A stretch of 64,000 nucleotides of DNA. Source: Daucus carota subsp. sativus. Lineage: Eukaryota; Streptophyta; Magnoliopsida; Apiales; Apiaceae. Shown piece by piece: positions 5,809 through 61,873 of the stretch (within the stretch, counting starts at the first letter, position 1; the number at the start of each line of letters is the position of its first letter). The DNA is taken from positions 7,018,779 through 7,082,778 of the forward strand of contig NC_030383.2 of the NCBI RefSeq assembly GCF_001625215.2. The letters run 5' to 3'. The translations under genes and the position numbers were made by a program. The notes below the pieces were generated by a model. It had not been told where the DNA came from and ran no database searches. It was given only the letters and a program-made list of their open reading frames with translations.

Positions 5809-5897
5809 TGAAGAATGGAGTGAGTTTCTGGAAGATTTTGACTTGTAGTGATGAAGATTAACAAATGGAGAAAGTGAAGGTGACAATGGGGGTGCAA

Positions 5898-12742: not shown

Positions 12743-12778
12743 ATTATAGTATAGATGACCCGGACCAAATATATTTTA

Positions 12779-37446: not shown

Positions 37447-37538
37447 CCCACGCGTGCTTAGATTAGGCTGAGCAATCAAACAGCTGCAAGTGGTATCCGC
37501 TTCTTTGTCGTACTATACACACGCTATGCATACGCGTC
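37447..37538 (+). promoter_or_regulatory. CBF-type promoter module 1 (orphan)
   Basis: Opens with CCCACGCGTG, then GCTGAGCAATCAAACAGCTG (E-box kept), then a GTCGTACTATACACAC stretch, and closes with ACGCGTC. Length 92 bp. A TATA-like TTTTTATACAAG follows at about 37665. No CBF coding sequence follows before module 2. Flanks on both sides resemble those of module 3. Confidence 0.8.
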
Positions 37539-38562
37539 CGGGTAGCATATACCACAATTTTTAGAAATTATTTTGTCAGCTGTTTCTAGAAATATCTCTG
37601 GGCGTCTGGGCCGCTCGGAAACAAAATATCTAAACTAAAGTCAGCAAGAGCCCCCACTACTTGGCTTTTTATACAAGTCATTTAGAGGTTAGACTGGCCC
37701 ATTTCTGTGACGCTTGTTTTATTTGCGCGACACGCAGATATGGACATATCGTTTATTTTGATTCACAGTGAGCATTTTTTAGGTTTATATAATTTTATTG
37801 TAAAATATTAATATATGTTTGTAATAATAGTAGTTATAAAAAAACATAGCACAACCATATTTATCTAATTATCACGGTTATTTGACTGGGCGTAGAACTC
37901 AGCTTCCTGGTGTATAAGTTGGAAGTAACTTGTTCGTATTGTTTATATAAAAATTGTTTAAATTAACTTCCGGTTTATAAATTTGAATCTAAATTGTTGA
38001 AATTTTAATTTTTTAGTGATTCATTTTTATATTTGAAATTGATTTTATAAAAATATAAACGATCATATTAAAAGATAATTCATAATAATTGTTTATTTTA
38101 TTAATAATTTTTATACCTAATAAGTTGTAACAAAAAAAATATAAAAATAATATATAAATTAAATTTTATTTTTCACTTATGTATAATTTTTTTATTTATA
38201 ATTGATAAACTTTTCTTTTAAGTTCTTCCTTTAAGCTGAGTCAAATGATCTGATGACGCTATTATATTTGTGATTATAGAAACAACATCACTACGATATT
38301 AGGCGATTTCATCAAATACATGAATTTATTTATAATAAATAAGAAATTAAATTAATGAAATTAGAAAATATATCAGGCACATGGCTGAGGAGGTTTAAGC
38401 ACGTAATATATTGATTCGGATAAAACAGCTCACAGTGTCTCTTGCATGCGTTTCTCTTTTAAAACATTATTAAGAAGTCACTAGAAATACACTAATAAAA
38501 TAAGCGCATCATTGTATGACAAGTGGCAATATAGTGAAGGTGCCACGATAGGCAAAACGAAA
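37539..38562. other. Gene-free stretch between modules 1 and 2
   Basis: AT-rich. I find no AP2-like remnant, although module 1 and a TATA-like motif stand at its start. Confidence 0.5.
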
Positions 38563-38655
38563 CCCACGCGTCTACAGATAAGGTGAGTAAGCAAACTGCT
38601 GCAAGGCCATACAAACTTCTTTGTGTGTACACCCCACACACTCCACTCCCGCGTC
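38563..38655 (+). promoter_or_regulatory. CBF promoter module 2 (drives the CBF at 38780)
   Basis: Opens with CCCACGCGTC and closes with CCGCGTC, 93 bp. The E-box position reads CTGCTG, so no CANNTG is present there. GTACACCCCACACACTCC is conserved. A TATA box TATATAA lies at 38670-38676 and the start codon 125 bp after the module. Confidence 0.85.
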
Positions 38656-38779
38656 CTTTGTAACCCCCCTATATAACTATCTCTCACTCACTCAATTAAA
38701 AGTATCAAGCCAACTCAGAACTAAAGTTCAAAAACACACTCTGCTTTTCACAACTGAAATAGAAAATCTACCTACATAT

Positions 38780-39451
38780 ATGAATAATTCACTGTTATAC
38801 TCGGATGAAGCTAGCTCATCTCAATCTACCGAATACTCATCAAACACCGAAAGCACTGCAAATTGCAACGACATTACTCAAATTTCGCATGAAGTTTTGC
38901 TAGCCTCAAGAAATCCGAAGAAGCGGTCCGGGAGGAAGAAATTTAAGGAGACGCGCCACCCTGTTTACAGAGGAATCAGGCGTAGAAATTCAGGCAAGTG
39001 GGTTTGCGAGGTTAGAGAGCCTATCAACAACTCTCGAATTTGGCTCGGGACTCATCCCACTGCTGAAATGGCTGCTCGAGCTAACGATGTTGCAGCCATT
39101 GCGCTCAGAGGTCGAAATGCCTGTCTTAATTTCGCAGACTCTGTGTGGAGGCTGCCAATTCCTGCTTCTAATGATGTTAAAGACATTCAGATAGCTGCGG
39201 CCAAGGCAGCAGAGGCCTTTAGGCCAAAAAAAATTGAAAAGACGATAGAATCGAGTCCGATTAAGGCACTCGTATCTGAAGAAAATGATGAGGTGTTATT
39301 CATGGATGAGGAATTGCTATTTGGAATGCCTCAATTCATCAAACACATGGCCCAGGGAATGTTGCTTCCTCCTCCACAATATCTACAAAGTGATAGATGC
39401 TATGGGGACGATGACTTGGAATATGCTACCGATATGTCTTTGTGGTGTTAA
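38780..39451 (+). CDS. CBF/DREB1 cold-response transcription factor (copy a)
   Basis: A 223-residue single-exon AP2/ERF protein. CBF/DREB1 factors bind CRT/DRE (CCGAC) elements and activate cold- and dehydration-response genes in the nucleus. The group signatures are present: [15 protein letters not shown] at 46-60 before the AP2 domain (about 61-118, [18 protein letters not shown]) and DSVWR at 120-124 after it. The C-terminal third is acidic with [14 protein letters not shown], a usual activation-region motif. The family's terminal LWSY is altered to LWC. The start is the first Met after the TATA and leader; an open frame runs further upstream through the promoter module and is not coding. 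Copy b at 49513 is nearly identical and has a similar 3' flank. Confidence 0.95.
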
Positions 39452-40038
39452 ACTATATTTTGATGAACACATGCACTGCAAACTTACCAGTGTTAGATTG
39501 GAACTTGGAAGTACCAGCGGATTTACATAAAATTGTGTTTAGGGATATATATTTCATTTCAAATTTTAGATTATAGATTTCACATCTTGTTATCTCTATG
39601 TATCCGGGGCTTTTTTTATCCCGGAGACTGAATATTAGAAGCTGTTTTGTTTAAACAAAGGAATGACGGTCTCGTGTTTTTTGTCAATCATGTCTTCAGA
39701 AAATACGAAATTCGGATATGTTGATATGCAGACTTGTTAATTGCATTTCCAAAGAATTTAGAATGCGAATGCTGAACAGCGGGGAGGTATTGGCGAATCA
39801 ACCGCTAAATATAAAAAGGTCCTTAAAAACCTCCGGAGAGCAAAGACGTCTTGCCAGAATTAACAAAGAACCTCTGGAGAAGAAATCGGAACAAGAGGGA
39901 TGTTGGAGAACTTTAGAAGCTATGTAGATGGTCGATATTCTGGAAAAATGAAAAAAATTGGAATAAGGCTTACTTTTGCAGATAAATAATTAAATTTTAC
40001 TAGTACCATTTATCAAAAACTTAAGATCTGTAACAGTA
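39452..40038 (+). other. 3' flank of CBF copy a, shared with copy b
   Basis: About 500 bp downstream (GTTAATTGCATTTCCARAGAAT, AACCTCTGGAGAAGAAATCGG, ATTCTGGAAAAA) recur in the same order after copy b (about 50280-50650). The duplicated unit therefore runs well past the gene. Confidence 0.7.
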
Positions 40039-40183
40039 GAGCACGATCGGATAGTCCAGTGGTTAAGGGTTTACTCTGTCATCCCAGGTCATGGGTTTGA
40101 CTCTGGCTCATCCCGAAAATATCTTCGAACAGATACTCAGTACTTTTGTAAGACTATAAGCCATATTAGTAAAAAAAAAAAAA
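40039..40183 (+). mobile_element. tRNA-derived SINE
   Basis: Box A-like GGATAGTCCAGTGGTTAAGG and box B-like GGTCATGGGTTTGACTC are seen near the 5' end, and the element closes with 13 A. Target duplication CTGTAACAGTA (40028-40038) / CTGTAATAGTA (40184-40194), one mismatch. Length about 145 bp. Confidence 0.8.
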
Positions 40184-40316
40184 CTGTAATAGTAAAATAA
40201 CCAACACTTTCCGGAAATATCTACTCTATCTATTTACCAACTTCTTGTCTTGTTCATATTATCATCCATGCTCCGATTAAAATATCCAATATTAAACTAA
40301 GATACTACAATAATTT

Positions 40317-40328
40317 TGTTTCAAAAAA
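40317..40328 (+). mobile_element. 12-bp retroposon-tail nano-insertion
   Basis: TGTTTC plus A6 lies between AGATACTACAATAATTT (40300-40316) and AGATAATACAATAATTT (40329-40345), a 17-bp duplication with one mismatch. Confidence 0.55.
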
Positions 40329-40396
40329 AGATAATACAATAATTTGATCCGAGACTAAATTATAAAGTTCATTATCTTGAAAAGACTAAACGTCAA

Positions 40397-40438
40397 TACA
40401 CACACACACACACAGATATATATATATATATATATATA
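40397..40438 (+). repeat. (AC)n-(AT)n compound microsatellite
   Basis: CACACACA units followed by about ten AT units. Confidence 0.9.
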
Positions 40439-40795
40439 TTTAACATTTATCTGTTTAATCATATCTGACTGATCCGTAAATTCATATACAAGTCAGTCAT
40501 CAAATATATACGTATTCATTGATAAAATTGAAATAATAACGTACTTATCTAGTTTGGTGATTAGAAAAGAAAACTGTGTCAATAACATTTAGCTAATTGA
40601 AAAAATATATATACACTTCTTACGTTCCTACTTCTGGTAGTTATTCGCCGAGAATTAGAGTTGCTCACTGCCACAATCTTACTGGAAATAATGACACATT
40701 AACGAACAAGTATGGGTCGTGGACTCCTGGCTGTTAATGAAAACAAAAAAGAAATACTGATGAAAGGGAAGTTCCATGGTTATCCTGTAGGAAGG

Positions 40796-40895
40796 CCCAC
40801 GCGTGCTAAGACTAAGTTGAGCAGCAATCACGCAGCTGCAAGCAATTTCTTTATATGTCCCCTTCTCTGTCGTACACACACTGTGCATACGCGTC
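40796..40895 (+). promoter_or_regulatory. CBF-type promoter module 3 (orphan)
   Basis: Opens with CCCACGCGTG, keeps GCAGCTGC, has GTCGTACACACACTG and closes with ACGCGTC. Length 100 bp. Upstream and downstream flanks match module 1 (GGAAGTT...; TGCATACGCGTCC; AAATATCT). No gene follows before the MITE and the Helitron. Confidence 0.8.
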
Positions 40896-41024
40896 CAGTT
40901 AAAACAAAACATCGCTGTTACTATATTTGTTAGTATTTTTATTTCGGGAGCTAGTTATAGAAAATATCTCCTACCCACTCACATACAAAAATATCTAAAA
41001 TAATTTCACCAAACTCTCTTTATA

Positions 41025-41324
41025 CTCCTCCCTCTCATTTGTTTACTGTTACTATTTTGGGATGTCCCTCTCATTTCTTTACGTTACTATAAATAGTAAG
41101 TTTTTTTCATCATTACACCCACTATCTTCCTCTACTATCTCATATTTAACAATAAAAACTACTATTACACCCACTACTTTCCTCCACTATCTCAAATCTA
41201 TTATTAAATATTGGTAGGTCCCACCACTTTATCCACTTTTCATCTAACTTTACTCATTTTTCATACATTGTCTTGGTCTCCGTGTCCCCCTCCAATGTAA
41301 ACAATTGAGGGGGACGGAGGGAGG
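41025..41324. mobile_element. Stowaway-type MITE (inverted copy of the 12779/61415 family)
   Basis: Ends are CTCCTCCCTCTCATTT and GAGGGGGACGGAGGGAGG. The interior is the reverse complement of the family interior (GGGATGTCCCTCTCATTTC; TTATCCACTTTTC). Confidence 0.8.
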
Positions 41325-41883
41325 ACAAGTCACTAGTCAGTCATGTACATGGGCTCCATTCCTCTCCTCCTCATGGGACCCTGTGTTTATTTGTGGTACT
41401 ACGTTGCATCTACACTTGCATAGGAAGTTTTTTACAATTTACAACTGCATTTTGTAAGTATTTATTGAATCAATAATATTATTTTTGACTTATTTAATAC
41501 TGTTTCATTCATTTATATTTACTTGATATATCTTCTAATTTTACATATTTCAAAACTTATTACAAATACTAAAATTTTATAATATAAAAATATATTTACA
41601 TTTTTATAACAAAAATCAACGAGTTCCATCTCTCGACTTAAGTTTTTTTAACTTTTATTCCTTATTTCATTTTATTATTCTTTTTATGAAAAAGATTCTG
41701 TGCACAACTCAAATTTAAACATTTATATCATAGGTGTATATTATTAGTATGTAATTATGTATAGATAATTTTTGGTATGGATATAAAGAAATTTAAAATA
41801 AGCTTTTGGTGTCTTTCTTTTTTCTCTTTCTTTTTTTGACAGAAGTTATTGGTGTCTTCCTTCTCTAAGCATTATTAATCTAA
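41325..41883. other. Gene-free stretch with a possible nano-insertion
   Basis: TTGGTGTCTT at 41806-41815 and 41849-41858 flanks a pyrimidine tract containing TTTTTTTGACAG. On the minus strand this is CTGTCAAAAAAA, the copy C terminus. Otherwise I see nothing. Confidence 0.45.
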
Positions 41884-42109
41884 CTAGCTTTATAGCCCGT
41901 GCAAGGCACGGGCATGCTTTAAATACACTTTGTCTTGTTTGAACTCGGTTCTAAAGAACAATGTAACAATTTCATCGTGACTACAACCATCATCATAAGC
42001 AGGAATTTTTTTTTACAAGTATACATTGTTTGTCACAAAAATGCCACAATCAATATTACCGATATCTTTAAAAGTTAACACATATATTTAGACATAGAGA
42101 TCTGTCCAA

Positions 42110-42416
42110 AAAAATAGAATATTGAAAACGCACTTTAAACAATTTATATATGTAAACAAATGAGTTTCTCTTCATAAGCAAAATTTCTCTTGCAGTCAAG
42201 GCTTTCATAAGTTCCGTCTTGTTAATACCATATTTTTGGATGGTAAAAGCAGCAGGATGGGTTTTTAGCTTTGTCAAATGAGGTTGGAAGACCATTCTTA
42301 ACATGTTTCCAGACATAAAATGATCGGAGAGCCTCAGCAAATTCTTTGGATGCTATAAACCTGTAAGGCTAGTCTTTGTATAGCCAATACTGTTTCTGAT
42401 CTTTCTTCAATGTCAC
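42110..42416 (-). pseudogene. PDR-type ABCG transporter exon fragment
   Basis: From a splice acceptor at 42416 the minus strand encodes VTLKKDQKQYW, then PYRFIASKEFAEALRSF, and in another frame KTHPAAFTIQKYGINK and ALTAREILLMKRNSFVYIYK. These match the linker and first helix of the second membrane domain of PDR transporters. A TAG stop (42369-42371) interrupts KD*PYRF, where the family usually has Gln or similar, and one frameshift lies near AAAGCTAAAAACC. It is not functional. Confidence 0.8.
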
Positions 42417-42940
42417 CTGCACCACAATTGTACAAGGTATATCAAATTCTATACCAAGTTACAACCTGAGCAAGCAGCAGGACAAGGTAGCAAGAAAATT
42501 TTACCGTATAGAAATGAATGAGAAAGAGAGAGTAGTAGTTTCACCCTGAATTTACCAGACTATGCAGCAGATTATGTTGTCCGATGTAGGTAACAAGAAA
42601 TGCTAGGCACTTCATATAAAAGCTTATGTAACAAAAAGCATGGACCGCAGAATGTCTCCCTCTTTAGAAGTCTAAAATAGCCTTACAGATTTCATTAGCT
42701 TCTGACAGTTGCGAAGGCATCACAATCAATTTGCATCTGCCTAAGCCGAGCCACACACAGGTGACAGGGCAGTATCACAGTCGCATGAGCTAAAACCTGA
42801 TGACATGCATTAGATAGCATTTAGTAATCCACTATATATGATACAGTTATATAAAAATAAAATTTCATCATATACCTCTCAAACTTTAATCGTTAACATT
42901 TTGATTCGACTTGAACTAAAACTTTTCATTTAGTAAAACC

Positions 42941-43421
42941 GTGTGTGGACGCACAGCCTACATAGTCATGTCTAGAGCACAGGAAGAGGCACAAAAAGAA
43001 AATATGTATGTCATTGCTTGTCTTTTAAATCGTTCTCTTGCTCAACAGGTTCACAAGGATGTCTTGGTTACTGATTTGTTAGTACTTCCACCTGGTACAG
43101 ATTTGCATGATCATCATTTTGTGAAAAATGGAATCATCCTTTAGGGCAAGGCAAGTTCTATGGTGGCAGTAGCCCTTGATCTTAGACCAGGGAGGTGAGT
43201 TGGACTTGTATCAGTCATGACTTGTGAGTTATCTTTATTCTATTGTCTACAGAGGCCTATGATGGTTTAATCAAATTTCTTTTTTCCTCCTAAGGTTCTT
43301 GATGCATGGTCAGCCTCAGGAAACAAAACTGTTCATCTGGCTGCCTTAATGAGAGGGGAGGGGGAGATAATTTCCTGTGAACAGAACAAGGAGAGGGTTA
43401 AACTGCTTGTTACACTCAAAG
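42941..43421 (+). pseudogene. NSUN5-type rRNA cytosine methyltransferase fragment
   Basis: Two exons with intact splice borders are visible. The first encodes DLLVLPPGTDLHDHHFVKNG, then a TAG at 43142-43144 where the family has Gln (LQGKASSM), and continues GKASSMVAVALDLRPG. The second encodes VLDAWSASGNKTVHLAALMR and CEQNKERVKLL. The SAM-binding DACAAPGNKT motif is altered. The rest of the gene is missing. It is on the opposite strand from the other captured fragments. Confidence 0.8.
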
Positions 43422-44004
43422 GTAACTTCCAGTTGTGTTTCTTTTCTCGTATGAACCCTGAAAGAGTCACCTAAGTTGAGTTGCGGTTGTATTAAAGGGT
43501 CTTATGTATTTTAAATATGCAAATTAGATGAAGTAACTCAAAACATTAACAAAAACCAGGAACTGAAGCAATAAACCATAATTGGACTTGCCAATATTGG
43601 TTTATTGCTTGAGTCTGCAAGTCAAATTTTGAAAGTACTTAATCACTGTCATTGAGATTGCCATGTATAACTTGTCTGTGATATAATATACAACACATAA
43701 AATAGTTCATACAAATCAAATATGAAATCATATCACCCACTTAGTTATGAGGAGGAGTTTGAAGAAAAGTACTTTCAAATTTAGAAGACCCGCATCATGT
43801 ATTTGATACGCCTTAAACTCCTGCTATGCATGGCTTTGTAGATACGGCCCTAAGCGGACCTGTAATTCATCAATCAAGCTGGGCAAGCCAGATTGGAAAT
43901 TAAAATTGCAGCTCCAGCTCCACAAACATGTTGCCGAGTTCTGAGCAAGGAACCAGGTCCTTACTTTATTAAGTATTCATTTTGTCTTATTACTGGAAAG
44001 AGAG

Positions 44005-44252
44005 CTCCTTCCGTCCCTTTTTAGTTGTCACATTTCTATTTTTATTGGTCAAATTGACTAATTTTTGACCAAAGATTACAAGTCACTATTTCATTATTTT
44101 AAGAAACTGAAAATTACATCTTAAAGTAGATTAAAAGTTATTTCAAGTTTTTATTTAATCAATTGATAAAATATTAAAAAAAAATAAGTCAAACTTTGGT
44201 CAATTTGACAAGCACAAAATCAAATGTGACAACTATAAAGGGACGGAGGGAG
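44005..44252. mobile_element. Stowaway-like MITE nested in the Helitron
   Basis: CTCCTTCCGTCCCTTTTTAG and CTATAAAGGGACGGAGGGAG ends. About 248 bp, with inverted interior segments (GGTCAAATTGAC / GTCAATTTGAC-like). Confidence 0.8.
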
Positions 44253-45099
44253 TACTTTGTTAAAGTTCACCACAGTAGCAACTGGGACGCCCATACCTTT
44301 GACAAGACCCTTTATGCCTTCAGCTACTACTACTTGGATGGCTTTGCAATTTGACCATGATGGCATCTAAACTCTAAAGTCGCCCTCATATCAGGTCCTC
44401 TGCCACATCACCCATCTGAAAAATGCTATGCTTATTATAACGTTTAAATAGTATAGCGACATGAAAGAAGGATACACGTTACATAAGTTTATATTCTAGA
44501 AATGAAAAGCCTCAGAGAGCCTAAAACACAGTCATTTTATTATTTTTTATTATTTGAATAGGACGAGATGTACATGCAACATCTTGGCTATAAGACGTGC
44601 CAAGTCGCTTCAATATGAACATCATAATATATTGCATTTTTCAACCCAGTCAAGATTACATTCTCATGTAGATGAGCTTAAATTCCTAATAAACAAATCT
44701 TGGGCCCTTGGTGTTTATGAAATATATTCAGTGGATAGTGAAATCTACAGTTCTAAGATTGAGCTTAAACTTAACGAAATGTATATTATTATAAACTGAT
44801 GTTCCCTGGAATTACCATTATCTTTGCTCCCTGTCAACACAAAATCATACTCTCCCGCTTTTTAAAAGTTGATATCTCAGCCTTAACAATGTTTAGACTT
44901 CATCGGTATTGTCGCAAATGAGGGGTTCTTTGTTGGTTTCAGCGGCAGAAACATTTAGTTGTTTACTTGTGAAATAGTTTCTACAAATAAACTGACCTTG
45001 TCAATCTATACATAAGCATATGCCAAATGTCGATAATAGACAAATAAAGTTCAATAGAAAAGTGAAGTGAAACTAACTTTTTAAGTTTTTATTATTCTG

Positions 45100-45348
45100 C
45101 TCTCTCTGTCCCTCTCATTTCTTTGCAGTTTTCTTACATTGCTTGGCACACATTTTAAGGCACATAGAAAACATAGTTCCATAATTTATTTTTTAAATTT
45201 TCCTTTTTTATGTAAATATTTAAACATTAAACTTTATTCAGAAGAAATAAAGTGTAAAGTAATTTGTGAAACTACACTTCACTGGAGCCTTAAAATGTGT
45301 GTCAAGCGCCCGTCCCCCAAGGTAAATAACCTAGGGGGACAGAGAGAG
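45100..45348. mobile_element. Stowaway-like MITE nested in the Helitron (family of 17417)
   Basis: Ends CTCTCTCTGTCCCTC and GGGGGACAGAGAGAG. The interior GGCACACATTTTAAGGC and GAGCCTTAAAATGTGTG pair as inverted segments, as in the element at 17417-17660. Confidence 0.8.
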
Positions 45349-46460
45349 TATTATCTTGATTATATATGACCCCCTCACTTGTAAGAAAACCTTGTCTCAA
45401 CTATACTAACAAAGATAAGCGACCTAATAATTAGTTATCATTGTATAGATGATAATCATGATATAAAGACCAAGGAAAAACATAAATAGAAGAATCATGT
45501 GAGAAAATTGGCAAAAAGAAAAAGAATCAGGCACGCCTCTGAAAAACCCCTTTGATTTTTTATATATCACTTTCCTTGTCCTCTTTTTATATAAGCACCA
45601 GCACCCAAATTCATCCCAGAGAACTCACTACCTGATAGAATTGAAACCGAAACATTAATCAACATAAGAAACAACAAATCAAGTCATTTAAACATTTCAT
45701 CAACCAGTGTGGCACTCCATATTTGATAAAAAGGATTTGTGCCAAAATAAAGAGAACACCCGTAACAAATACATATACAAAACACAAATCACCTAGTGAT
45801 ATTGTGACGAGCGGTGAAAAAAATCAAGGAATGAAATGCTTGCAATAGGGATAACAGCTTGGAAAGAGCCTAAGAATGGAATGTTAAAAGGCATATTAGA
45901 CATAAGTAGTTGTGGATACCTGAGATATAACAGATCTGACGTGGCTTTCTAGCTCGATCTACGTGGCTGATGACATGGATTAAAATGGGTCAAAACTACC
46001 AGCCGCAATAAAAATGTACATGCACCAAGTTAAACCTATATACCTGTGGAATCAAGTAGGTGCTGACATCACACGGCAATGGCAGATTTTTGACCTCATC
46101 TTCGTAAAATAGTCTACAAACTGTTTTTGGTAGATTCTAGTCAAATTCTCTTTTTGACAATGTCAACAGTAAGTGAATATGTATATTTTGAATTGTAATA
46201 GTATCTCACTGTATACACTCCAAACTCAGACACACACAGCATATTCAAAGTATTTAATGTGGAAAATAAAAGCACTACTACAAAATCAAGCTAATGCGAC
46301 GTTCTTTGCCATACAGAGAACTGGAATGCCATTTGCAGTCTTCCCAGTATAATTATTTTATAAATAGCAGAGGAAAATGATACAAAAGGGTAAACTGATT
46401 ATATATCAAGACATCACAAAGTGTTTGGGAGTATATTGATGCAAAAGCAGAGCCTCATAC

Positions 46461-48145: not shown

Positions 48146-48439
48146 TCCCGATTTTCAAACTGGATCAGTTTCTCTAGCAATTTTACTCCACCATAAAGAA
48201 TAAGTCATTCAAGCATTTCATCAAACAGTGTGGCACTCCATATTTAATAAAAAGGAGCTATGGCAAAATCAAGGATAATATAATCAAGAATCATAAATAT
48301 TGCTATATAGTAAATGAAAAAAAATACTAAATAGCATTCAGGATTCAAGATAAATGTCAAGTACCAAATTAAACAGGTAGATAGGTGTATTTGGAGCACG
48401 CATGCATAGATAGATGCTAGCATTAAAAAATTGATGTAC

Positions 48440-48555
48440 CTGCATATAGAGGACCTGTTGATGTTGAAGACCGGTGTAATTGAAATAGTAGAACTTGTCG
48501 CCTTCCCTAAATGGAGCATCATACTTGGGATAATCATACATACAATTCTGTACAA
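48440..48555 (-). pseudogene. Prolyl endopeptidase exon fragment
   Basis: The minus strand encodes YDYPKYDAPFREGDKFYYF then NYTGLQHQQVLYMQ, ending at a GT donor at 48440. This matches the N-terminal beta-propeller entry region of prolyl oligopeptidases. No neighbouring exon of that gene is present, so it is an isolated captured piece. Confidence 0.75.
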
Positions 48556-49221: not shown

Positions 49222-49313
49222 CCCACGCGGATGAAGATAAGGTGAGTCATCGAAAAACAGGAACGCCATATAAACTTGTTTGTGGTACACCACACACACA
49301 ACGCTCCCGCGTC
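49222..49313 (+). promoter_or_regulatory. CBF promoter module 4 (drives the CBF at 49513)
   Basis: Opens CCCACGCGGA, closes CCGCGTC, 92 bp. The E-box position reads AACAGGAA, so the E-box is absent. GTGGTACACCACACACAC is intact. TATA box TATATAA at 49344-49350. The probable Helitron end lies 134 bp upstream. Confidence 0.85.
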
Positions 49314-49512: not shown

Positions 49513-50223
49513 ATGAATAATTTTCTATCATACTCGGATCAAGCCATCTCTGAGTATCAATATACCAGCTCACCTCAATCTACCGAATCCTCATCCACCC
49601 CGAAAAGCATTACCAATTGCAACGACATTGAGTCCCCTGCTCACATTTCACATGAAGTTTTGCTAGCCTCAAAAAATCCGAAGAAACGCTCCGGAAGGAA
49701 GAAATTTAAGGAGACGCGCCACCCTGTTTACAGAGGAATCAGGTGTAGAAATTCAGGCAAGTGGGTTTGCGAGGTCAGGGAGCCTGTCAACAACTCTCGA
49801 ATTTGGCTAGGAACCTATCCCACCGCTGAAATGGCAGCTCGAGCTAATGATGTTGCAGCCATGGCGCTTAGAGGTCGCAATGCCTGTCTTAATTTCGCAG
49901 ACTCTGTATGGAGGCTGCCAATTCCTGCTTCCAACGATGTTAAAGACATTCAAATAGCTGCGGCCAAGGCAGCAGAGGTCTTTAGGCCACAGAAAATTGA
50001 CAAGGCAATAGAATCGAGTTCGGTGAAGGCATTCGTATTTGAAGAAAATGATGAGGTGGTATTCATGGATGAAGAATTGCTATTTGGAATGCCTCAATTC
50101 ATTAACAACATGGCACAGGGCATGTTGCTTCCTCCTCCACTATATCTACAAAGTGATAGATGTTACGGGGACGATGACTCAGAAGATGCTACTGATATGT
50201 CTTTGTGGTGTCAAACATTTTGA
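49513..50223 (+). CDS. CBF/DREB1 cold-response transcription factor (copy b)
   Basis: A 236-residue single-exon CBF. Signatures are [15 protein letters not shown] (56-70), an AP2 domain (about 71-128) and DSVWR (130-134). It differs from copy a by a longer N-terminal Ser-rich segment and GIRCRN in place of GIRRRN, a Cys at a normally basic position next to the DNA-contacting arginines. The C-terminus ends LWCQTF instead of LWSY because the frame runs two codons on. The acidic [13 protein letters not shown] region is kept. Promoter, leader (AAGTATCAAGCCAACT) and 3' flank are shared with copy a, so the two are a recent duplicate pair. Confidence 0.95.
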
Positions 50224-51445: not shown

Positions 51446-51460
51446 TTATACACGATGTTC

Positions 51461-52404: not shown

Positions 52405-52496
52405 CCCACGCGTCTTTACGCTAAGGTGAATAATCAAACAGCTGGAAACTTGTTGTGTCAGTCCATCGTAAACCACACACACTCAGCCTTCGCGTC
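52405..52496 (+). promoter_or_regulatory. CBF-type promoter module 5 (in front of a CBF relic)
   Basis: CCCACGCGTC start, AATCAAACAGCTGG (E-box kept), ATCGTAAACCACACACAC, TCGCGTC end, 92 bp. A TATA-like TATATATAAGG follows at 52698-52708. Confidence 0.8.
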
Positions 52497-52738
52497 TGAG
52501 TGTGTTGAGCCACATACATAGATAAAAGGTTTTCACTTTCCTTATTTAGTCAAACAATTAAATATGTTTTTAGGTTAATTTGTCATGTGTGAGTCTGTCG
52601 CACACAAAATTATGTCTGTACATTTTATTCTCCCATATTATACAACTAAAACAAGTAACCTTTTATTTAGCAAATAATCACTGCTTATTGTTTAAGCTAT
52701 ATATATAAGGATCAATTCACAGTTCCTTCCATATACAG

Positions 52739-52982
52739 ATGTATTCTTACTCAGTTCTTAGTACTCAGACCAACCTCAGCTCATCCTCTCTCAATAATAT
52801 CACCTCAGTTCCCAGATATCTCAAGCCCATATAATCACAATGGCCCTGGCACCCATGCACAACCACATTGAGCTCCATGGACCCTGCTGCTCATGAATAT
52901 GTGACACCAAGTGCGCGCTGGCCCTGAAGGAGTATATGATGATTTACAGAGGAGTTCGGCGTTTGATTAAGTTCAGGCTAGC
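52739..52982 (+). pseudogene. CBF/DREB1 relic
   Basis: An ATG 30 bp after a TATA-like box opens 31 codons of Ser/Thr-rich sequence like a CBF N-terminus, then TAA at 52832-52834. Further on, 52938-52970 encodes MIYRGVRRLIK, a piece of the AP2 start (VYRGVRRR), out of context. The rest of the AP2 domain is absent. Position and promoter fit a decayed CBF copy; the weak similarity keeps this moderate. Confidence 0.55.
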
Positions 52983-53541
52983 TAGCGGGCTTCTGATCCA
53001 GGTATTAGTACTAATCATTAATGAGTTTCTGATGTATGTTATTTCCCATCTCTTTGTCAGAAATCTTGAATCATTCTTTTTCTAACAGAATCTTGCACTA
53101 CGTTTTGTCTATGTGATGAACCTCGCTCAATCTTTTTACTAGCTAGCTACTCGAATGTTTTGCATTTTCCACCGTGCACACTTAATTTTTTGGAAATTAT
53201 GCGTTATTTTCCCTGCCAGATAGGAACATAAATTAGTGCTTACACCTCCGTGGCTAGAAAATAGAAATAGACATTAGTAGTGGAGAATTTATTTTAAATC
53301 GGAACCCAACACAGTTCCCAATTAAAGTAAAAACCTAGAAATCAATTTTGCTTTCTTATAAAATTATAAGTATCAAATATGATGGAATCACATTCTAAAG
53401 ACACGGCGTGTAGATATGAATCCCTAAAAAATTTGGTGACAAAATTTTAAATACCTGACACTACTCATATTATAACTACAGTCATATTATATATTTTAGT
53501 TTAGGTTTTGTTAACGAGGATAAATTTATGAAAAGTTATTA

Positions 53542-53844
53542 CTCCCTCCGTCTCGATTTATAGGTCCATTTTGGAATAAACACACATATTAAGAAAAAAG
53601 TTAGTTAGATGGAATCTTATCTCATGTATCATTAATTAGTGCATTGATAAGTGAGAATATTGTTGAGTTTCAAAAAAATCACAATAAATATAGGGATTTA
53701 GTGCATTGAGAAATGAGAATAATGTTGAGTTTCAAAAAAATCACAATTAATATGTAGATAAATTTGTATTGAAAGAAGAGAGGGACAAGTATTTTGGGAC
53801 AAATTTTCTTTCCAAACTGGACCTATAAATTGAGACGGAGGGAG
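53542..53844. mobile_element. Stowaway-type MITE (inverted relative to 27485)
   Basis: CTCCCTCCGTCTCGATTTAT and AAATTGAGACGGAGGGAG ends, TA flanks, and an interior homologous in reverse to the element at 27485-27787. Confidence 0.85.
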
Positions 53845-53884
53845 TAATTTCTAAGGCTTAATTTTGGTAATTGAAATTGAAGAA

Positions 53885-53888
<4 letters not shown>

Positions 53889-53942
<54 letters not shown>
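53889..53942 (+). repeat. (AT)n microsatellite
   Basis: About 26 uninterrupted AT units, so likely very variable between individuals. Confidence 0.95.
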
Positions 53943-53944
<2 letters not shown>

Positions 53945-54859
53945 CATGTTACATTTTTTTTTGAAACAACATGTTATTACAGTTTAGATCTCACTCTTTA
54001 TAAAATGTATAAATTGTTACTTATTGTTTACCTAATTAAAGTTATTTCTATATGCAAAGTTTTGTGAGTTAGATCTCAAATTAGAATATACGTTACAAAA
54101 TGAATTTATATAAAAGTCACAGTACTTTATTATAAAGATTTAATAAAAACTCAATAATTTCTTAGTGGCCAAAAGTATTTTTAACTGTGCCTCACACACA
54201 GCACTGCACAATATAGATGCGAAAATCTCAATATAAATAATAGCTATAGTTAGATTAAATTAGATATTTCTAAAAACAAATACTATAATATAGTTATATA
54301 TTTAAAAGTATAATATAATCTTGTCTGAAAATAACAGATTTAATAATAAATATATGATTGATAAGAAAATTATAAATATAATATGTTGATGATCTAGAAA
54401 TTTAAATATACTATGCTAAACTATAAAATATACATATAATTTGTTACTCTATTATATCTAGTTATTTTTGTATAAATAACTAAATCTATGATTTATTGAT
54501 TATATCAAACTACGTAAAATGTTCTATAAAATTTTGTCCGTTATATTCGCCTGCTTTTTCTTTCTCAAAATTACTGGCCGGCGCGTTGATGAATATATTG
54601 CTTAGTTCTCCATCTGGATTCAATAAAAGTCCATGTCCAATTAAGAATCTAAGATGAATGATAGCATAATACATCATGGCTTGAAATATCATATGGGGGA
54701 GGGGGACCATACCGGATATTACTCCAGGTTTTTACTCTCAATAAGACCACAAACCAAAAAGTGCGAGGTTTGAATACTTGGCTCACATTTCATGATAGAT
54801 GGGTTTATTAGAAAACGACAGCACTAAAAGAGGAAGGTGCTGCGTTAGCAAAAACGAAG

Positions 54860-54951
54860 CCCACGCGTGTTTGTACTAAAGTGAGTAATCCTACAGCTGG
54901 GAATCTTCAGTGTCAATCAATCGTAAACCATACACACTCAACCTTCGCGTC
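54860..54951 (+). promoter_or_regulatory. CBF-type promoter module 6 (orphan)
   Basis: CCCACGCGTG, TCCTACAGCTGG (E-box kept), ATCGTAAACCATACACAC, TCGCGTC, 92 bp. About 250 bp upstream and patches downstream to about 55430 match module 5's surroundings, but no AP2 piece follows. Confidence 0.8.
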
Positions 54952-56891
54952 GACAATGTGCTCGGCCACAAAAGTGTTTCACTTCCTTTTTTAGTAAACA
55001 AATAAAGTAGTAGTAATAAACTATTATTTGTCGCCTGTCTCACACAAGATCCAGTATTCCGATGAGTTTAAAATAAATGATTCTTTTATAAAATAAAAAA
55101 AGTTGAGCAAAATTAAAAATTAGTTAATACTCATAAATAAATAAAGTGTTTGAGAAAAAAATAAAAATCGTGAAACAAAAAGTAGGATTCTTAACTTTTT
55201 ATAAGCGTTTCTCGACTTTTTACACAAATAATACAAATAAATACTTCTAACTTATAATTTTAGAATTGCGGTTTAAAAAGTTCATCAAACACCCACAATA
55301 TAAATTATGCACCAACTCTTTTCGATCAACAAATCATCCCCACCTTACATAAACCACTCCCCTCAGTGACCTCACCGAGATCCCGAATTACTCATTCACC
55401 TCAGTATTAGGCACATGTAATCACAATTATTACAAAAGACATAGAATATGCTGCCCGGAAAAGAGTATCTAGACTTGGGATCAAAGGTAAGAGAACTAAT
55501 CGGTAACTTTCGAGCTGATTTTTCATTTTTCTTCATCACGGTATCACCGCAACACATCCTTTTTTTTTTTCCTGCGAGACGCTTTTGACGGATTGAAAGG
55601 AAGTCAAACATTTGACGGAAACTGATCTTTCCGCAAAGAATTTTAGACAAACAGGAAAGTCGATCCAAAAACTTGAATTGATTTTTTTCTTCTAGAAGTG
55701 ATATTTGAATTATAATGAAGTCTACATTTTTCATACACAATATATTCCCCTGTAACGTGGTTTATATATACTTTGTATGTGTTCTTTTTATTATTAGTAT
55801 AGCTTTCACACAATAAAAATTATTAAAATAAAAATCAAGTACATAGGAGGAGACCGGGAGAAGACTTCTAGTTGAGGTTTGGGATGGCAACTGGTGAGAC
55901 TATGTTGGCTCAAATTTTAGTTCTTGCATTGTTAGGTTTTAATTGTTCGAGACCTGTCAAATCTAAACACAATTCTACCAAGTTTAGGGTGAATTAAATG
56001 GAGACATAGATGAACTTTGTAGGGGACATGTCATGTGTGAATGAATCATGATATATAGAATATATGTTATATTTTTATTTTAATAATTTGCAGTATCTAC
56101 ACATATATATAATTTCAAAATCATCACACAAACTTATATGTATCTTTTTACATTATTCCATTAATTAAGTTGATGAATTATACTAGATAAGTAGTACATG
56201 TATTTCTTCTTTTCCATTATTGATAAAGGTTTTAATTATAGTTACAATTGTGTTATTTTATCCAAATTCATTCTTATAATATTATGTTGTTTTTCTTTCA
56301 TCCAAATCTATTCTTCTAATATTAGGATGGGACATCAAAAACTATACACGTAAACGGACGCCCTATAAAAATTATGTGCAATTTCTTGGATTTATAAGAT
56401 TTTATTCTTTTCTTTATGATTTTTGGAAATTTTGTTTGTGCTTGATCTTAAATTTGAAATCTCTGACACACATATAATATTTTATTTATTACATGTACTC
56501 TAACTTATACCATGTTCAAACTATTTATAATACATATTTCACACATTATATGTAAACATTTCTTTGATAATCTATAGATAGAATTTAGGTACTCATGTTG
56601 TTAATACGTGGCATGTGCAACCTGTTTAATATAGTAAATGATGGAATTATGTGATATTTATAGTTAAGTTGAATAACCAGGATATGGCACCCCACTAGCT
56701 AGATATTGAGTGTATTGAAGAGAAGATAATTAAGTTCGTACAACTAGATATTTGTCTCAATATGATTCAAACGACCCCACCACGGACACTTTAGGGTTGT
56801 TAATTAAAGAAATAAAAAAGGCTGTTTTAATACTTGGCTCCCAAATGTTATGCTTAGCAAAAGGAAGTTGCTCCGTTAACAAAAACTCAAA
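54952..56891. other. Gene-free stretch between modules 6 and 7
   Basis: I see no supported gene. Near 55320-55430 there is patchy similarity to the leader/relic region after module 5 (CCTCAGTATTAGGCACATGTAATCACAAT). Confidence 0.5.
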
Positions 56892-56994
56892 CCCACGCGT
56901 GTTGAGATTTAGGTGAATAAACAAACGGTTGCAAGGCTTTGCTCCAATGCACTAGCTTCTCTCTCGTACACCACACACACTCGCGCACCGCGTC
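56892..56994 (+). promoter_or_regulatory. CBF promoter module 7 (drives the CBF at 57140)
   Basis: CCCACGCGTG start and CCGCGTC end, 103 bp because of about 11 extra bases in the middle. The E-box position reads ACGGTTG, which is a MYB-type core. CTCGTACACCACACACACTC is intact, with an additional CGCG at 56982. TATAAAA follows at 57035. Confidence 0.85.
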
Positions 56995-57139
56995 ATATTA
57001 CACTCATCCAGAGTTTTAGCCACTCACTCTCTCTTATAAAAGAACTCATAAAGTCAGTGTTAAGCTCACAACACAAAGAGCCTTTTCACTACTCCATATT
57101 TGAACACTTCCTTATTTAGCGTAACATCTTTCTTTATAA

Positions 57140-57862
57140 ATGGATCAATTCTTCTCCTTGTCGGACCAGACTCTTTCTCAGTATCCATCTTCTAGCTCAC
57201 TTCAACTTCCGGAATCCTCATTTCCCACTGATATCACAGGCAATAGTTTTGTTAGTGAGAACGGGAAAGGCATTGATTCTGATGACTTGCAAGCTCATGA
57301 TTCGTATGAAGTGTTGTTGGCTTCGAGTACTCCTAAGAAACCCTCTGGAAGGAAGATATTTCAGGAGACGCGCCACCCGGTCTACAGAGGAATAAGGCGT
57401 AGGAAGTCAGGCAAGTGGGTTTGTGAGGTTAGAGAGCCTGTCAATAACTCTCGAATTTGGTTAGGAACTTATCCCACTGCTGAAATGGCGGCACGGGCTA
57501 ATGACGTTGCAGCCATTGCACTCAGAGGCCGAAATGCCTGCCTTAATTTCGCTGATTCTGTGTGGAGGTTGCCTGTTCCGGCTTCTCCTGATGTCGTTGA
57601 CATTCAGAAAGCGGCTTCCAAGGCAGCCGAGGCCTTTAGGCCCCCGGAAACTGATAATGCAGCGGGCTCAAGTACTCAGGAAAGCTCAATAGAATTGCAA
57701 GAGAATGAGGTGTTGTATATGGATGAAGAGGTGGAATTTGGAATGCCTGAATTCATTAATAACATGGCACAAGGAATGATGCTTTCTCCCCCTAAATATG
57801 GGCAGATGGAGGGGTGTTATGGGGATGATGACATGGAAGACCTATCTTTATGGAGTTATTGA
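57140..57862 (+). CDS. CBF/DREB1 cold-response transcription factor (copy c)
   Basis: A 240-residue single-exon CBF, the most complete of the three. Signatures are [15 protein letters not shown] (65-79), an AP2 domain (about 80-137, [18 protein letters not shown]) and DSVWR (139-143). The acidic C-terminus has [20 protein letters not shown] and ends in the canonical LWSY. The start is the first ATG after TATA and leader. It is clearly more diverged from copies a and b than they are from each other, so it represents an older duplication. Confidence 0.95.
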
Positions 57863-59800
57863 TTTCAGTGCACGATTCTAAGACTAGGGTACTACAGTAC
57901 TCGTACTAGATTGGACGTGCCCAAGTGACAACTTTGTCTATGTTCACTTCTTTTTTCATAAATTCGCCGTATAAAAGCCTGTTTTGTTATAGTGGGTCGA
58001 GATACACCTCTTGGCGAGACTGCAAAGTAATGCCCAGGCACTTCCGGCATACAATTTGGAGTTTCGGTAAAAAAAAAAAGAGAACGTGGATCCGGAATAT
58101 GTGTCTGTTCTGTTTGCGTACCTCTCTTTATATTTTGGTTGTACCTCAATTCGATCACTCCAGTGTGTTGATGTGGGTGGTAACAACTTGTTCTGTTGCA
58201 ACCTATAGCTGAAGGGTCAGCTGTCATTTTACACTCCATGAGTGGTGACGACTTGTACTCTGTTGCAGCCCATAGCTTGTGAAGCGATCCTTTTAGGCTG
58301 TCCTCATAATTTGTACCAATCCCTTATGTTGTGTGATAATAGGGGTTGTACATTTTTAAGTTTTTGGTGTCTGGGGAGAGTGACTTGATATTGGCTCTTT
58401 CCAATTTTCAGTTCGTTTCTTCGTTTCCAGTGCTTGATGGTTTTTTTTGGAGCCTTGATGTCTTCTGGGCTAATACCTTCAAGATTTGATATGGCCTTTC
58501 GTACCCTTCTCCATATAGCTCAAATGGACATTCATTTGAGTTCTCCACATGCATATTGTGAACTCCGTCAATGTATCATCACCGCAGACATCTCCTCATA
58601 ATCACTTTCGGATAATTGTCTTATTGAGACTTCGCGATATGGGCTCAATTTCTTTTGAAACTCCTCGGACATTTTTTCAACTTTGGCCAAATTAATCGAC
58701 TTAATTGACTTCAGTATATAAAGATTGATGGACTCCTCGATACATCAGTTTCTCCAACCTCTCGAGACCTTTAATGAAATTTATATATTCATCTTTGTTG
58801 GCTATTATTGATCGGTTGCCCCTAACACTTATTTCAGAGACTTCTATGTGTTAGTTAAACAGAAACAAGAAGTGTCCATGGAACGAAAATTCTTGACCTA
58901 TCTACCTGATTCTTCTGGACTTTCTGATCTCTGAACTCCTTCATCTCAAACCAAAATACAACTGACAATAATTAAATTGTTGAGTACAACAATGACCAAT
59001 GATATAATTACTAGGTTTCAACATCTGGAGTACTTTAAATATATAGAGTCACTTAAATAATATACAGATATACGTACAAAATATGTGATATATTAATCTT
59101 GATCACGAAATTTGAACTAGATTGACGAGCCCACTTAGTTATAACTGAGTTTAATGAATAACTACGTAATAAAAAACAAGCATGTTAACAACTATCAAGT
59201 CTAAATCTTTTACATGCACATTTCGCTTAATAATAATTAATATTTAAGTCAATTCGAATATCACTCCTTGGCAACCAATTACTAGTTCAATAGATATTTC
59301 TTTCAATTGAACATGGTATTCACGAGTGTCATAAGTTATTTACAACCAGAATAACACGTAAGCAACTAAGGAAGGTGGGCTTAATCAATAGGCCCGTGAT
59401 TATGATGTGTAGGGTTTTAAGTTTCACAAGAGTACAAGAACTAGAAGAATCTAGCACATCAAATTCAAATTTTAAACTTTTTTCTAAACTAAAAATTTTA
59501 ACTTCTTATATTAACATGTTTAAGCACCTCATAAACTCAGTTGAACATTCATACCTGTAATATCACTCCCTTTCTAAGTTTTTATAATTTCATTGAAAAA
59601 ACAAATTCACAAAATAGTTAAAAGAGTTTTATCGACAAAATAAACTAAAATTATATACGAATCATTTTCTTCACAGAAAAGAAATACACCTATATATGCA
59701 AAATTAAAGAAAGGGTTGTCGGGCATATTCGCCTCATGATGCATTGGCAGACAGCGAAATGGAAAAGGAACTTGCCATGATAGGCACCAGAGGAAGAAAG
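57863..59800. other. Gene-free stretch after CBF copy c
   Basis: I see no gene. At about 58182-58280 an imperfect duplication (CTGTTGCAACCTATAGCT / CTGTTGCAGCCCATAGCT) occurs about 70 bp apart. Confidence 0.45.
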
Positions 59801-59892
59801 CCCACGCGTGTTTAAATAATGTGAGCGATCCAACAGCTGGAAGGCCATACAAACTTGTTTGTAGTACACAGCACACACCCCACGTCCGCGTC
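59801..59892 (+). promoter_or_regulatory. CBF-type promoter module 8 (orphan)
   Basis: CCCACGCGTG, TCCAACAGCTGG (E-box kept), GCCATACAAACTTGTTTGT as in gene-linked modules 2 and 4, GTAGTACACAGCACACACC, CCGCGTC. Length 92 bp. This is the only orphan with an exact CCGCGT. No CBF follows. Confidence 0.8.
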
Positions 59893-60977
59893 GACAGTAT
59901 AATCATAAACCTATACTACTGTATATCGTATTGATTACCTCTGCAGACAATCAATTTTTCAGCACTCTTTCCTACTGACCTCACACAAACTAGAGCTTGT
60001 TCTCAGTTGAAACTTGAGATACACGTGCCCCTTCATTCTTTACAGTAGGCACTTCTTATTCTACAGCGGTGGTGGTGGTGGACATGTCAGTGTTTTAAAT
60101 TTCTGACGTAATCAATTAATAATATTAATTTGATTTTTGAAATTTGATTAATTCTTATTTAAATATACTTGTTAATTATAATTAAAATATTGTATCACTT
60201 TAAATATCAAGTATTATGCAATTTATGATATAATAAATATATATATTTGTTGATAAATAAATAATAAATAATATTTTCATATATAAATATATACAATTTT
60301 CATTCCAATTAATATTTGATTTTCGATTAATTCTAAATCGGTAGCTCAACCTATTAAATTTAATTCCTATATAGGCCATCTTACGGGTCATAAATAATTT
60401 ATAAATTAAATCAAACAAGCGCATAATACAAATATTTAAGAATATTTGATTCTAATTGGACAGAGAAATATTCTTCTATGTGCGTAGGTATTAGGGTGAG
60501 CCAAAAACATGTGAAACTGAAACATGAGAACTGCTAAAAATAGAAAAATTAAAAATCGAAAGTGATTGTTGGGTTGAGATAAGAACCGATCCGAAAAATT
60601 CCAAATCAATCCGACTTTAAATATATATATAAATATATATATATATTATTTTTAATCAATATAAATCTCACCTAAACTTACCGTTATAAGTTTCCAGTAT
60701 GGTAAATGGCTTGTTTATTATTAGGGTAATATTTTGAGGTTAATGATTTTTAATTACTATATTTGTAAGAGGATTTTGAGCTGATAAAATTATATTGTGT
60801 TTTAATTTTGAATTTAATACTAATATTTTTGTAATATCGGGATGATATAATATCAGCTGGTCATCTCAGTGTATGTGTTATCTTTTTTTCTGATTATATG
60901 GATAATATGGCATAGAGGGATAGAACACTCGGCTGAAATGAAAATCGAAAAGTAAGTTGCTGTGAAGTAAAGAATAT
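59893..60977. other. Gene-free stretch between modules 8 and 9
   Basis: AT-rich sequence with a (GGT)n patch at about 60064-60080. I see no AP2 remnant. Confidence 0.5.
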
Positions 60978-61068
60978 CCCACGCGTGTGTAAATAAGTTG
61001 AGCAATAAACAGCTGTAAGCCGGTACGAGTCTTTTTGTGGTACACCACACACTCTGTGCTCGCGCGTC
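60978..61068 (+). promoter_or_regulatory. CBF-type promoter module 9 (orphan)
   Basis: CCCACGCGTG, GAGCAATAAACAGCTG (E-box kept), GTGGTACACCACACACTC, GCGCGTC, 91 bp. ACTATATATCGGATA follows at about 61100, similar to the sequence after module 10. Confidence 0.8.
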
Positions 61069-61414
61069 CGAAGAACTGCGAGACATGCATAGCCACACAC
61101 TATATATCGGATATACCCTACACTAGATTACAGATTTACAGCTCTTTCAACGGACAACATTACATTCGTTGTCACAACGAAATATGCATCCACCTTCCCC
61201 GTTTCTGTCACCACGAAATATGCATAATACATCCACTCTTCTCCGTTTTTATGCGTTATTAGTGTTGTGATAAATTTTAAATTAGTTTTCAATCAATTAA
61301 TTCAGATTTTTAATTTCTCACAATTATATTTTGTACGCATCCTTGACTTCTCGCGCGCGGAGTTGTTTATTTATTTGATTGTGTTATATTTTATTTATTG
61401 TGAACAAGAATGTA

Positions 61415-61717
61415 CTCCCTCCGTCCCCCTCAATTGTTTACATTGGAGGGGGACACGGAGACCAAGATAATGTATAGAAAATGAGTGAAATTAGATGAAA
61501 AGTGGGTAAAGTGGTGGGACCTATCAATATTTAATAATAGATTTGAGATAGTGGAGGAAAGTAGTGGGTGTAATAGTAGTTTTTATTGTTAAATATGAGA
61601 TAGTGGGGGAAGATAGTGGGTGTAATGATGAGAAAACTTACTATATATAGTAACGTAAAGAAATGAGAGGGACATCCCAAAATAGTAACTATAAAGAAAT
61701 GAGAGGGACAGAGGGAG
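61415..61717. mobile_element. Stowaway-type MITE (family of 12779)
   Basis: CTCCCTCCGTCCCCCTC and GAGAGGGACAGAGGGAG ends with TA flanks. The interior is nearly identical in layout to 12779-13083. Confidence 0.9.
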
Positions 61718-61782
61718 TATAGGAGACTAGGAGCAAGTGAAATGGAAATTTAAACCCAAGCTGGTGGACAAGGCAAGGAAAT

Positions 61783-61873
61783 CCCACGCGTGTCGAGATA
61801 AGCTGAGCAATAAACATCTATTATGCCTGTACAAATTTCTTCGCGGTACATCTACACACTATGTATTCGCGTC
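61783..61873 (+). promoter_or_regulatory. CBF-type promoter module 10 (orphan)
   Basis: CCCACGCGTG, GAGCAATAAACATCTA (E-box lost), GCGGTACATCTACACAC, TCGCGTC, 91 bp. Downstream ATAGCCACACAC and CGGATACCCTA resemble the region after module 9. No gene follows. Confidence 0.75.

What the first reader, a model, noticed from the sequence alone, without database searches (positions are those of the whole stretch)
37447..61873. Ten same-strand copies of a ~92-bp CBF promoter module, most without a gene
CCCACGCG...CGCGTC modules occur at 37447, 38563, 40796, 49222, 52405, 54860, 56892, 59801, 60978 and 61783. Eight of the ten are 91-93 bp long, the others 100 and 103. All point the same way. Three precede intact CBF genes and one a CBF relic; six have no coding sequence. 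Between the outer CGCG sites each shows variants of TGAGCAAT, CAGCTG and GTACACCACACAC. CGCG sites are known CAMTA targets in CBF promoters (CM2 in Arabidopsis). Conserved length in gene-less copies suggests either recent duplication or retained function as enhancers, decoys or ncRNA promoters.
Basis: partly seen in the sequence, partly recalled or inferred. Interest (0 to 1): 0.92.

Follow-up and report, generated by a model that had tools for sequence, protein, structure and literature searches.

The report
Orphan CBF promoters in carrot cluster
A cluster of cold-response (CBF) genes in carrot contains several copies of the CBF promoter that have no working gene behind them, probably left by dead genes, yet two short presumed calcium-signal (CAMTA) sites in each copy have kept their core, which hints that some may still be used.

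Summary
All ten CCCACGCG modules exist, on one strand, where chance gives 0.13. The window is carrot chromosome 3. Extending it showed a larger array: seven CBF genes, each with the module (degenerate at gene G), plus eight gene-less modules; an 11th + strand copy lies at 64791 and gene D's copy points the other way. The module is the ancestral CBF proximal promoter: degenerate forms precede CBF genes elsewhere in the genome. The gene-less copies are best read as promoters of dead CBF genes: AP2 relics follow 61783 and 64791, and a weak trace follows 52405. They are not plain debris in every respect. In three orphan pairs the two CGCG boxes show 0/42 differences against 60/214 at other variable module positions; box CpGs are kept 24/24 against 16/39 outside. 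At two relic loci neutral decay predicts about 6.7 box changes; none occurred. Against function: interiors diverge as fast as alignable flanks, positions +50 to +60 are conserved in genes only, and four orphans have TCGCGT at box 2. Best reading: dead-gene promoters with retained CAMTA-type sites, perhaps enhancer-like. Expression, chromatin and other species were not testable.

The parts
37447..37538 (+). gene-less CBF promoter module; shares flanks with 40796; both boxes intact; no TATA-like site within 90 bp
38563..38655 (+). CBF promoter module of gene A, TATATAA 14 bp past box 2
38780..39451 (+). CBF/DREB1 gene A, 223 aa, dN/dS 0.21-0.33 against genes B, C, E, F and G
40796..40895 (+). 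gene-less module; no TATA-like site; a MITE-like repeat follows from 41021
49222..49313 (+). promoter module of gene B
49513..50223 (+). CBF/DREB1 gene B, 236 aa
52405..52496 (+). gene-less module, paralogue of 54860 over about -206 to +206
52728..52895 (+). weak CBF N-terminal trace 323 bp past the 52405 module start
   Evidence: E 3.8 over 194 kb; about 0.03 if only the 1.5 kb in place is counted, own scaling
54860..54951 (+). gene-less module; the TATA-like site of its partner 52405 is missing
56892..56994 (+). promoter module of gene C
57140..57862 (+). CBF/DREB1 gene C, 240 aa
59801..59892 (+). gene-less module closest to those of genes A and B (75-77%)
60978..61068 (+). gene-less module; shares its tail with 61783 and 64791
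61783..61873 (+). gene-less module with an AP2 relic 1.57 kb downstream; no TATA-like site
63353..63504 (+). decayed CBF AP2-domain relic; 11 of 26 family-conserved residues changed

Best explanation
The ten modules are copies of the ancestral CBF/DREB1 proximal promoter, multiplied with the genes by tandem duplication. The gene-less ones are promoters of CBF copies whose coding parts were deleted, decayed or split off by a transposon. Shown: homology to live CBF promoters, and CBF relics behind some copies. Inferred: the same origin for copies without a relic; that after the genes died selection kept the two CGCG boxes while much of the rest drifted; and that these boxes still bind CAMTA factors and act as enhancer-like cis elements for the surviving CBF genes, rather than driving a product of their own.
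For: Modules precede 7 of 7 cluster CBF genes (6 with both CGCG cores, G degenerate) and, in degenerate form, CBF genes on chr6 and at chr3:44.6 Mb. AP2 relics after 61783 and 64791; the latter is cut off from its module by an LTR element with 98.5% identical LTRs. Relics are long dead: 11/26 and 6/15 family-conserved residues changed against 0 or 1 of 77 in genes A, B, E, F, G. Orphan modules match live-invariant module columns about as well as left-out live modules do (39/394 mismatches against 30/280; p 0.80). Boxes 0/42 against 60/214 (p 5e-6). The boxes are the only one of 95 sliding placements without a difference. CpG kept 24/24 in boxes against 16/39 outside, each site counted from both members. 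A box-free leave-one-out profile finds all 8 orphans (E 2e-5 or better), so they were not picked by their boxes. P(0 box changes at the two relic loci) = 0.001, or 0.022 at the lower bound. TATA-like sites are missing at 4 of 8 orphans, which suits an enhancer better than a promoter.
Against: Interior substitution identity equals that of alignable flanks in orphan pairs (0.80 each). Positions +50 to +60 are conserved among genes (0.76) but not among orphans (0.43). Box 2 reads TCGCGT in 52405, 54860, 61783 and 64791, outside the VCGCGB consensus listed for coffee (PMC5853422 passage), while genes A-F keep A/CCGCGT. Pairs may have diverged partly while their genes were alive. Decay at live-invariant columns of module 61783 (8/49) does not differ from its relic on substitutions (22/91, p 0.39), and those relic counts are inflated because the relics seem to come from another CBF type. 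The 61783 relic lies about 1 kb further from its module than in live genes; the cause was not found. TATA-like sites are also missing at 2 of 7 genes (D, G), so the TATA argument is weak. No CAMTA binding, expression or cross-species test was possible.
Confidence: 0.45

Rival explanations
1. Plain debris: promoters of dead CBF genes, orphaned too recently (often by clean CDS deletion) for the boxes to have mutated; the pattern reflects constraint while the genes lived.
For: Relics behind 3 of 8 orphans, one weak; interior and flank substitution identity equal; +50 to +60 no longer conserved among orphans; box 2 context TCGCGT in four orphans; TATA-like site missing in 4 of 8.
Against: At 61783 and 64791 the coding relics are old (17/41 conserved residues changed), yet 0 of 28 box bases changed where 6.7 were expected. 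CpGs outside boxes decayed (16/39 kept) but none inside (24/24).
Confidence: 0.38
2. Promoters of cold-induced noncoding RNAs, comparable in kind to SVALKA/SVALNA at the Arabidopsis CBF locus.
For: TATA-like sites at 52405, 59801, 60978 and 64791; CBF-locus lncRNAs exist (PMC12549994 abstract).
Against: TATA-like sites missing at 4 of 8; SVALKA/SVALNA are described as antisense, whereas these modules point in the sense direction; past about +200 I saw no common downstream sequence, only remnants shared by 61783 and 64791 and short repeat-like matches.
Confidence: 0.12
3. Modules were spread without genes, by a mobile element or as a stand-alone repeat.
For: Five orphans in the window show no coding relic.
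Against: Exact patterns place the module only in this cluster: 10 of 13 strict hits (the other 3 at the level of the backward control, 5) and 8 of 8 half-module hits (control 4). Degenerate copies elsewhere are not excluded, as a genome-wide profile search was not possible. 37447 matches gene E's promoter and leader to +188; orphan subgroups share flanks, as in tandem duplication.
Confidence: 0.03

Closest known systems
CBF/DREB1 proximal promoter with CM2 (CCGCGT) / CAMTA sites, Arabidopsis CBF2 (Doherty et al. 2009, seen through PMC9094111 passages)
   Same: CGCG-core boxes close upstream of CBF genes; exact CCGCGT in box 2 of genes A, B and C and upstream of three chr6 CBF genes
   Different: Here two boxes 85-97 bp apart frame a conserved block, and eight copies have no gene
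Solanum CBF1 upstream regions conserved amid gene duplications, deletions and rearrangements (Pennycooke et al. 2008; only its title seen, in reference lists)
   Same: CBF upstream sequence staying alike in a cluster in flux
   Different: The title concerns upstream regions of genes; whether gene-less copies were seen cannot be judged from a title
SVALKA / SVALNA lncRNAs at the Arabidopsis CBF locus (PMC12549994, outline and abstract seen)
   Same: Noncoding regulation inside a CBF cluster
   Different: Those are antisense transcripts; here only DNA modules are shown, in sense orientation

Membership tests
CBF/DREB1 proximal promoter | lies within about 300 bp upstream of a CBF start codon | tested here: met
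   genes A, B, C, E and F (217-291 bp from module start to ATG), G's degenerate copy 164 bp; gene D is 578 bp away behind a MITE-like insertion; not met by the eight gene-less copies
CBF/DREB1 proximal promoter | shared by CBF genes outside the cluster | tested here: inconclusive
   met in part: profile hits upstream of L028 (E 5e-8), weakly L026 (0.011) and L030 (0.11), and CCGCGTC upstream of three chr6 CBF genes and the chr3:44.6 Mb CBF; no hit at E<=10 in the three chr5 loci, both strands, and none assigned to the more distant chr6 homologue L037 at E<=1
CAMTA target site | CGCG core with VCGCGB context | tested here: inconclusive
   box 1 meets it in 14 of 14 aligned modules (gene G not in that alignment); box 2 in 10 of 14, TCGCGT in four orphans
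CAMTA target site | binding by a CAMTA protein | not testable with these tools
   no ChIP, DAP-seq or EMSA data
Enhancer / retained cis element | purifying selection after gene loss | tested here: inconclusive
   boxes, CpGs and indels say yes; interior substitutions and +50 to +60 say no; no outgroup species
lncRNA promoter (SVALKA-like) | transcription from the element | not testable with these tools
   TATA-like site in 4 of 8 orphans only

The most novel reading that the evidence does not exclude
An array of gene-free CBF promoters persists as a cold-signal hub: eight paired CGCG elements recruit CAMTA factors and set the cold response of the surviving tandem CBF genes, so regulatory DNA has outlived the genes it once served and changed from promoter to shared enhancer.
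Probability: 0.25. Interest if true: 0.8.

Novelty: new variant of a known kind. Interest (0 to 1): 0.5.

Why it matters
Tandem CBF clusters are linked to freezing tolerance and are usually counted by genes (general knowledge). If promoter modules stay under selection after their genes die, cluster output may depend on orphan elements that gene counts miss, and carrot offers a compact place to test whether a dead gene's promoter can become an enhancer. If they are debris, the cluster is still a clear record of CBF birth and death.

Tried and rejected
Mobile-element spread: disfavoured by exact pattern searches (see rivals). Ascertainment by CGCG: tested with a box-free leave-one-out profile and rejected. 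'Module more conserved than flanks' as a plain substitution test: failed (0.80 against 0.80); the local alignments put more gaps into flanks, so it is not a clean comparison. Shared death mutations of the 63353 and 76699 relics: I first took their common bases for shared decay, but they spell an EPNK..GTF-type AP2 common among the homologues, so death before duplication is not shown. Helical phasing of box spacing: not pursued. Gene D was first called a pseudogene; carrot protein P0024 matches it as two exons, so it may be alive. Pairs with 64791 and all of 59801 were left out of the pooled pair counts for independence; the boxes in the pairs 60978-64791, 61783-64791 and 59801 against genes A and B are also 14/14. 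Live leave-one-out for modules used genes A, B, C, E, F; D and G were left out, and gaps were removed from the orphan denominators but not from the live ones. DNA search with 59801 found only gene A's copy besides itself, so that search is insensitive.
Full report
What was checked. The pattern CCCACGCG occurs ten times in the window, always on the + strand and at the reported positions; shuffles give 0.13 on average. CGCGTC starts 85-97 bp after each. Three copies stand before intact CBF genes: A (38780-39451), B (49513-50223) and C (57140-57862).

Where it is. The genome is 441.09 Mb in 11 contigs and the window is C3:7018779-7082778. A homology search with gene C (4142 hits, best 120 listed) puts carrot proteins, Daucus carota subsp. 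sativus, on a contig of the same length as C3 (64,558,952 bases); DCAR_0310631, _0310632 and _0310633 have the sequences of genes E, F and G.

The whole array. In 194 kb around the window a profile of twelve modules finds 15 copies: eight without an intact gene (37447, 40796, 52405, 54860, 59801, 60978, 61783, 64791), six with both CGCG cores at genes A, B, C, D, E and F, and one degenerate copy without CGCG at gene G. Gene D and its module are on the - strand. D's coding sequence is split by about 1.7 kb, but a named carrot protein (P0024) matches both parts, 100% over residues 1-150 and 96% over 144-219, so D may be spliced and alive. Genes A, B, C, E, F and G are under purifying selection (dN/dS 0.19-0.33 in 15 of 15 pairs), with dS 0.68-1.14 except A-B at 0.28.

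What the module is. Conservation covers about -30 to +91 from CCCACGCG and falls to background on either side. Orphans and genes have broadly similar profiles, with one clear exception: +50 to +60 is conserved among genes (0.76) but not among orphans (0.43). CBF genes outside the cluster carry degenerate versions of the same layout: L028 on chr6 at E 5e-8, L026 at 0.011, L030 (chr3:44.6 Mb) at 0.11, each with CCGCGTCC; a third chr6 gene (L029) has CCGCGTC too. The three chr5 homologues gave no hit at E<=10 on either strand within about 1.5 kb, and the more distant chr6 homologue L037 none at E<=1. The module is therefore best taken as the ancestral CBF proximal promoter, lost or absent in some CBF lines. 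CCGCGT is the CM2 motif reported as bound by CAMTA3 (PMC9094111, passages). The strict module pattern occurs 13 times in the genome, 10 of them here, and a half-module pattern 8 times, all here (backward controls 5 and 4). These are exact patterns; degenerate copies elsewhere could have been missed.

What lies behind the gene-less copies. A profile of six live CBF genes finds relics at 63353-63504 (AP2 domain, E 1.8e-5), 76699-76779 (AP2 domain, E 3.5e-4), two C-terminal relics outside the window at 113372-113563 and 118058-118214, and a weak N-terminal trace at 52728-52895 (E 3.8). The reversed sequence gives nothing better than E 12, but other forward hits at E 1.1-8 look like chance, so the 52728 trace rests on its place. 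The 76699 relic is separated from module 64791 by an LTR retrotransposon (Gypsy type by its reading frames, recalled) at about 65152-76507 with 98.5% identical LTRs and GTGTA at both ends. Without it the relic would lie about 550 bp from the module, against about 418 and 506 bp for the same residues in genes A and C (arithmetic). The 63353 relic lies 1.57 kb from module 61783, about 1 kb too far; the cause was not found. So 61783, 64791 and perhaps 52405 are promoters of dead CBF genes. The other five have no detectable coding relic, but 37447 matches gene E's promoter and leader to +188.

Are the gene-less copies decaying? Three orphan pairs that share no member were compared (52405-54860, 60978-61783, 37447-40796). 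Interior identity is 181/225 and flank identity 461/578, both 0.80: by substitutions, the module interior drifts like its alignable flanks. But the CGCG boxes show 0/42 differences against 60/214 at other module positions (p 5e-6), with intermediate loss at positions invariant in live genes (19/106, p 0.054 against the other positions). Of 95 placements of an 8+6 bp frame only the boxes have no difference; CpGs are kept 24/24 in boxes and 16/39 outside, counting each site from both members. Indel events are 14 per 356 bp inside and 60 per 577 bp outside (p 7e-4), though the aligner favours gaps in flanks. The boxes were not a selection criterion: a leave-one-out profile without them finds all eight orphans, E 2e-5 to 2e-15.

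Timing. At the two AP2 relics 17 of 41 residues conserved in at least 95% of 112 homologues (of the 120 listed; 8 dropped for length) are changed, against 0 or 1 of 77 in genes A, B, E, F and G and 1 of 78 in D. Taking 2.25 nonsynonymous sites per codon (assumed), this is about 0.24 substitutions per site, so 6.7 changes would be expected in the 28 box bases of 61783 and 64791; none is seen (P 0.001; 0.022 at the lower confidence limit). At columns invariant in live genes, module 64791 has 2/49 mismatches against 12/55 for its relic (p 0.009); for 61783 the contrast is 8/49 against 22/91 (p 0.39), or p 0.026 if gaps count. These column counts are inflated for the relics, which seem to come from an EPNK-type CBF unlike the live cluster genes; the residue test above avoids this. 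All orphans together (39/394) look like left-out live modules (30/280; p 0.80).

Against function. Besides the interior drift and the loss at +50 to +60, box 2 reads TCGCGT in 52405, 54860, 61783 and 64791, whereas genes A-F have A or C before CGCGT; VCGCGB is the consensus listed in the coffee DREB1D paper (PMC5853422, passages). TATA-like sites within 90 bp are present in 4 of 8 orphans and 5 of 7 genes. Gene G lives with a module that lost its boxes, so the boxes are not essential for every CBF. I had no plant DNA outside this genome to compare, and no expression or chromatin data.

Reading. Origin as promoters of dead CBF copies is well supported. Continued use is suggested by box conservation after gene death but not proven; if real, an enhancer-like CAMTA site fits somewhat better than an RNA promoter, because TATA-like sites are missing in half the copies. 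Eight paper searches on CBF listed no title on gene-less CBF promoters; they cover open-access papers only, seven of the eight showed only their top rows, and most hits were seen as listings.

Noticed in passing
window coordinates 82594-85000 (past the window; L010/L011), - strand: Carrot CBF gene D has its coding sequence interrupted by about 1.7 kb, and a named carrot protein reads across it as two exons; possibly an insertion turned into an intron in a normally intronless family (that CBFs are intronless is recalled).
   Followed up: partly
window coordinates 114969-115846 (L016): CBF gene G is intact and under purifying selection although its promoter module has lost the CGCG boxes.
   Followed up: partly
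window coordinates 113372-113563 and 118058-118214: Two C-terminal CBF relics; the nearest module upstream found by the profile is gene F's for the first and gene G's for the second: dead genes that seem to have lost their own promoter as well.
   Followed up: no
window coordinates 65152-76507 (L009/L010): LTR retrotransposon (Gypsy type, recalled), LTRs 98.5% identical, inserted between module 64791 and its decayed AP2 relic.
   Followed up: partly
12777-13083, 41021-41327, 61411-61721: Copies 88-93% alike of a short repeat that looks like a Stowaway-type MITE (family name recalled), two of them next to gene-less modules.
   Followed up: no
modules in the window and beyond: The E-box CAGCTG is kept in 6 of 8 gene-less modules but in only 2 of 7 gene-linked ones.
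   Followed up: no
G000:C6:37296908 (L037/L049): A lone CCGCGTC about 0.76 kb past the distant CBF homologue L037 and 6 kb before the next CBF gene on chr6; no module profile hit there.
   Followed up: no
27482-27792 and 53537-53847: A 311 bp inverted pair, 93% identical, 26 kb apart; next to it a self-complementary 58 bp stretch at 53886-53943.
   Followed up: no
3243-5897 (-) and 25460-26893 (-): Long open frames resembling a CrRLK1L/FERONIA-like receptor kinase and a UDP-glycosyltransferase (family names recalled from the translations).
   Followed up: no
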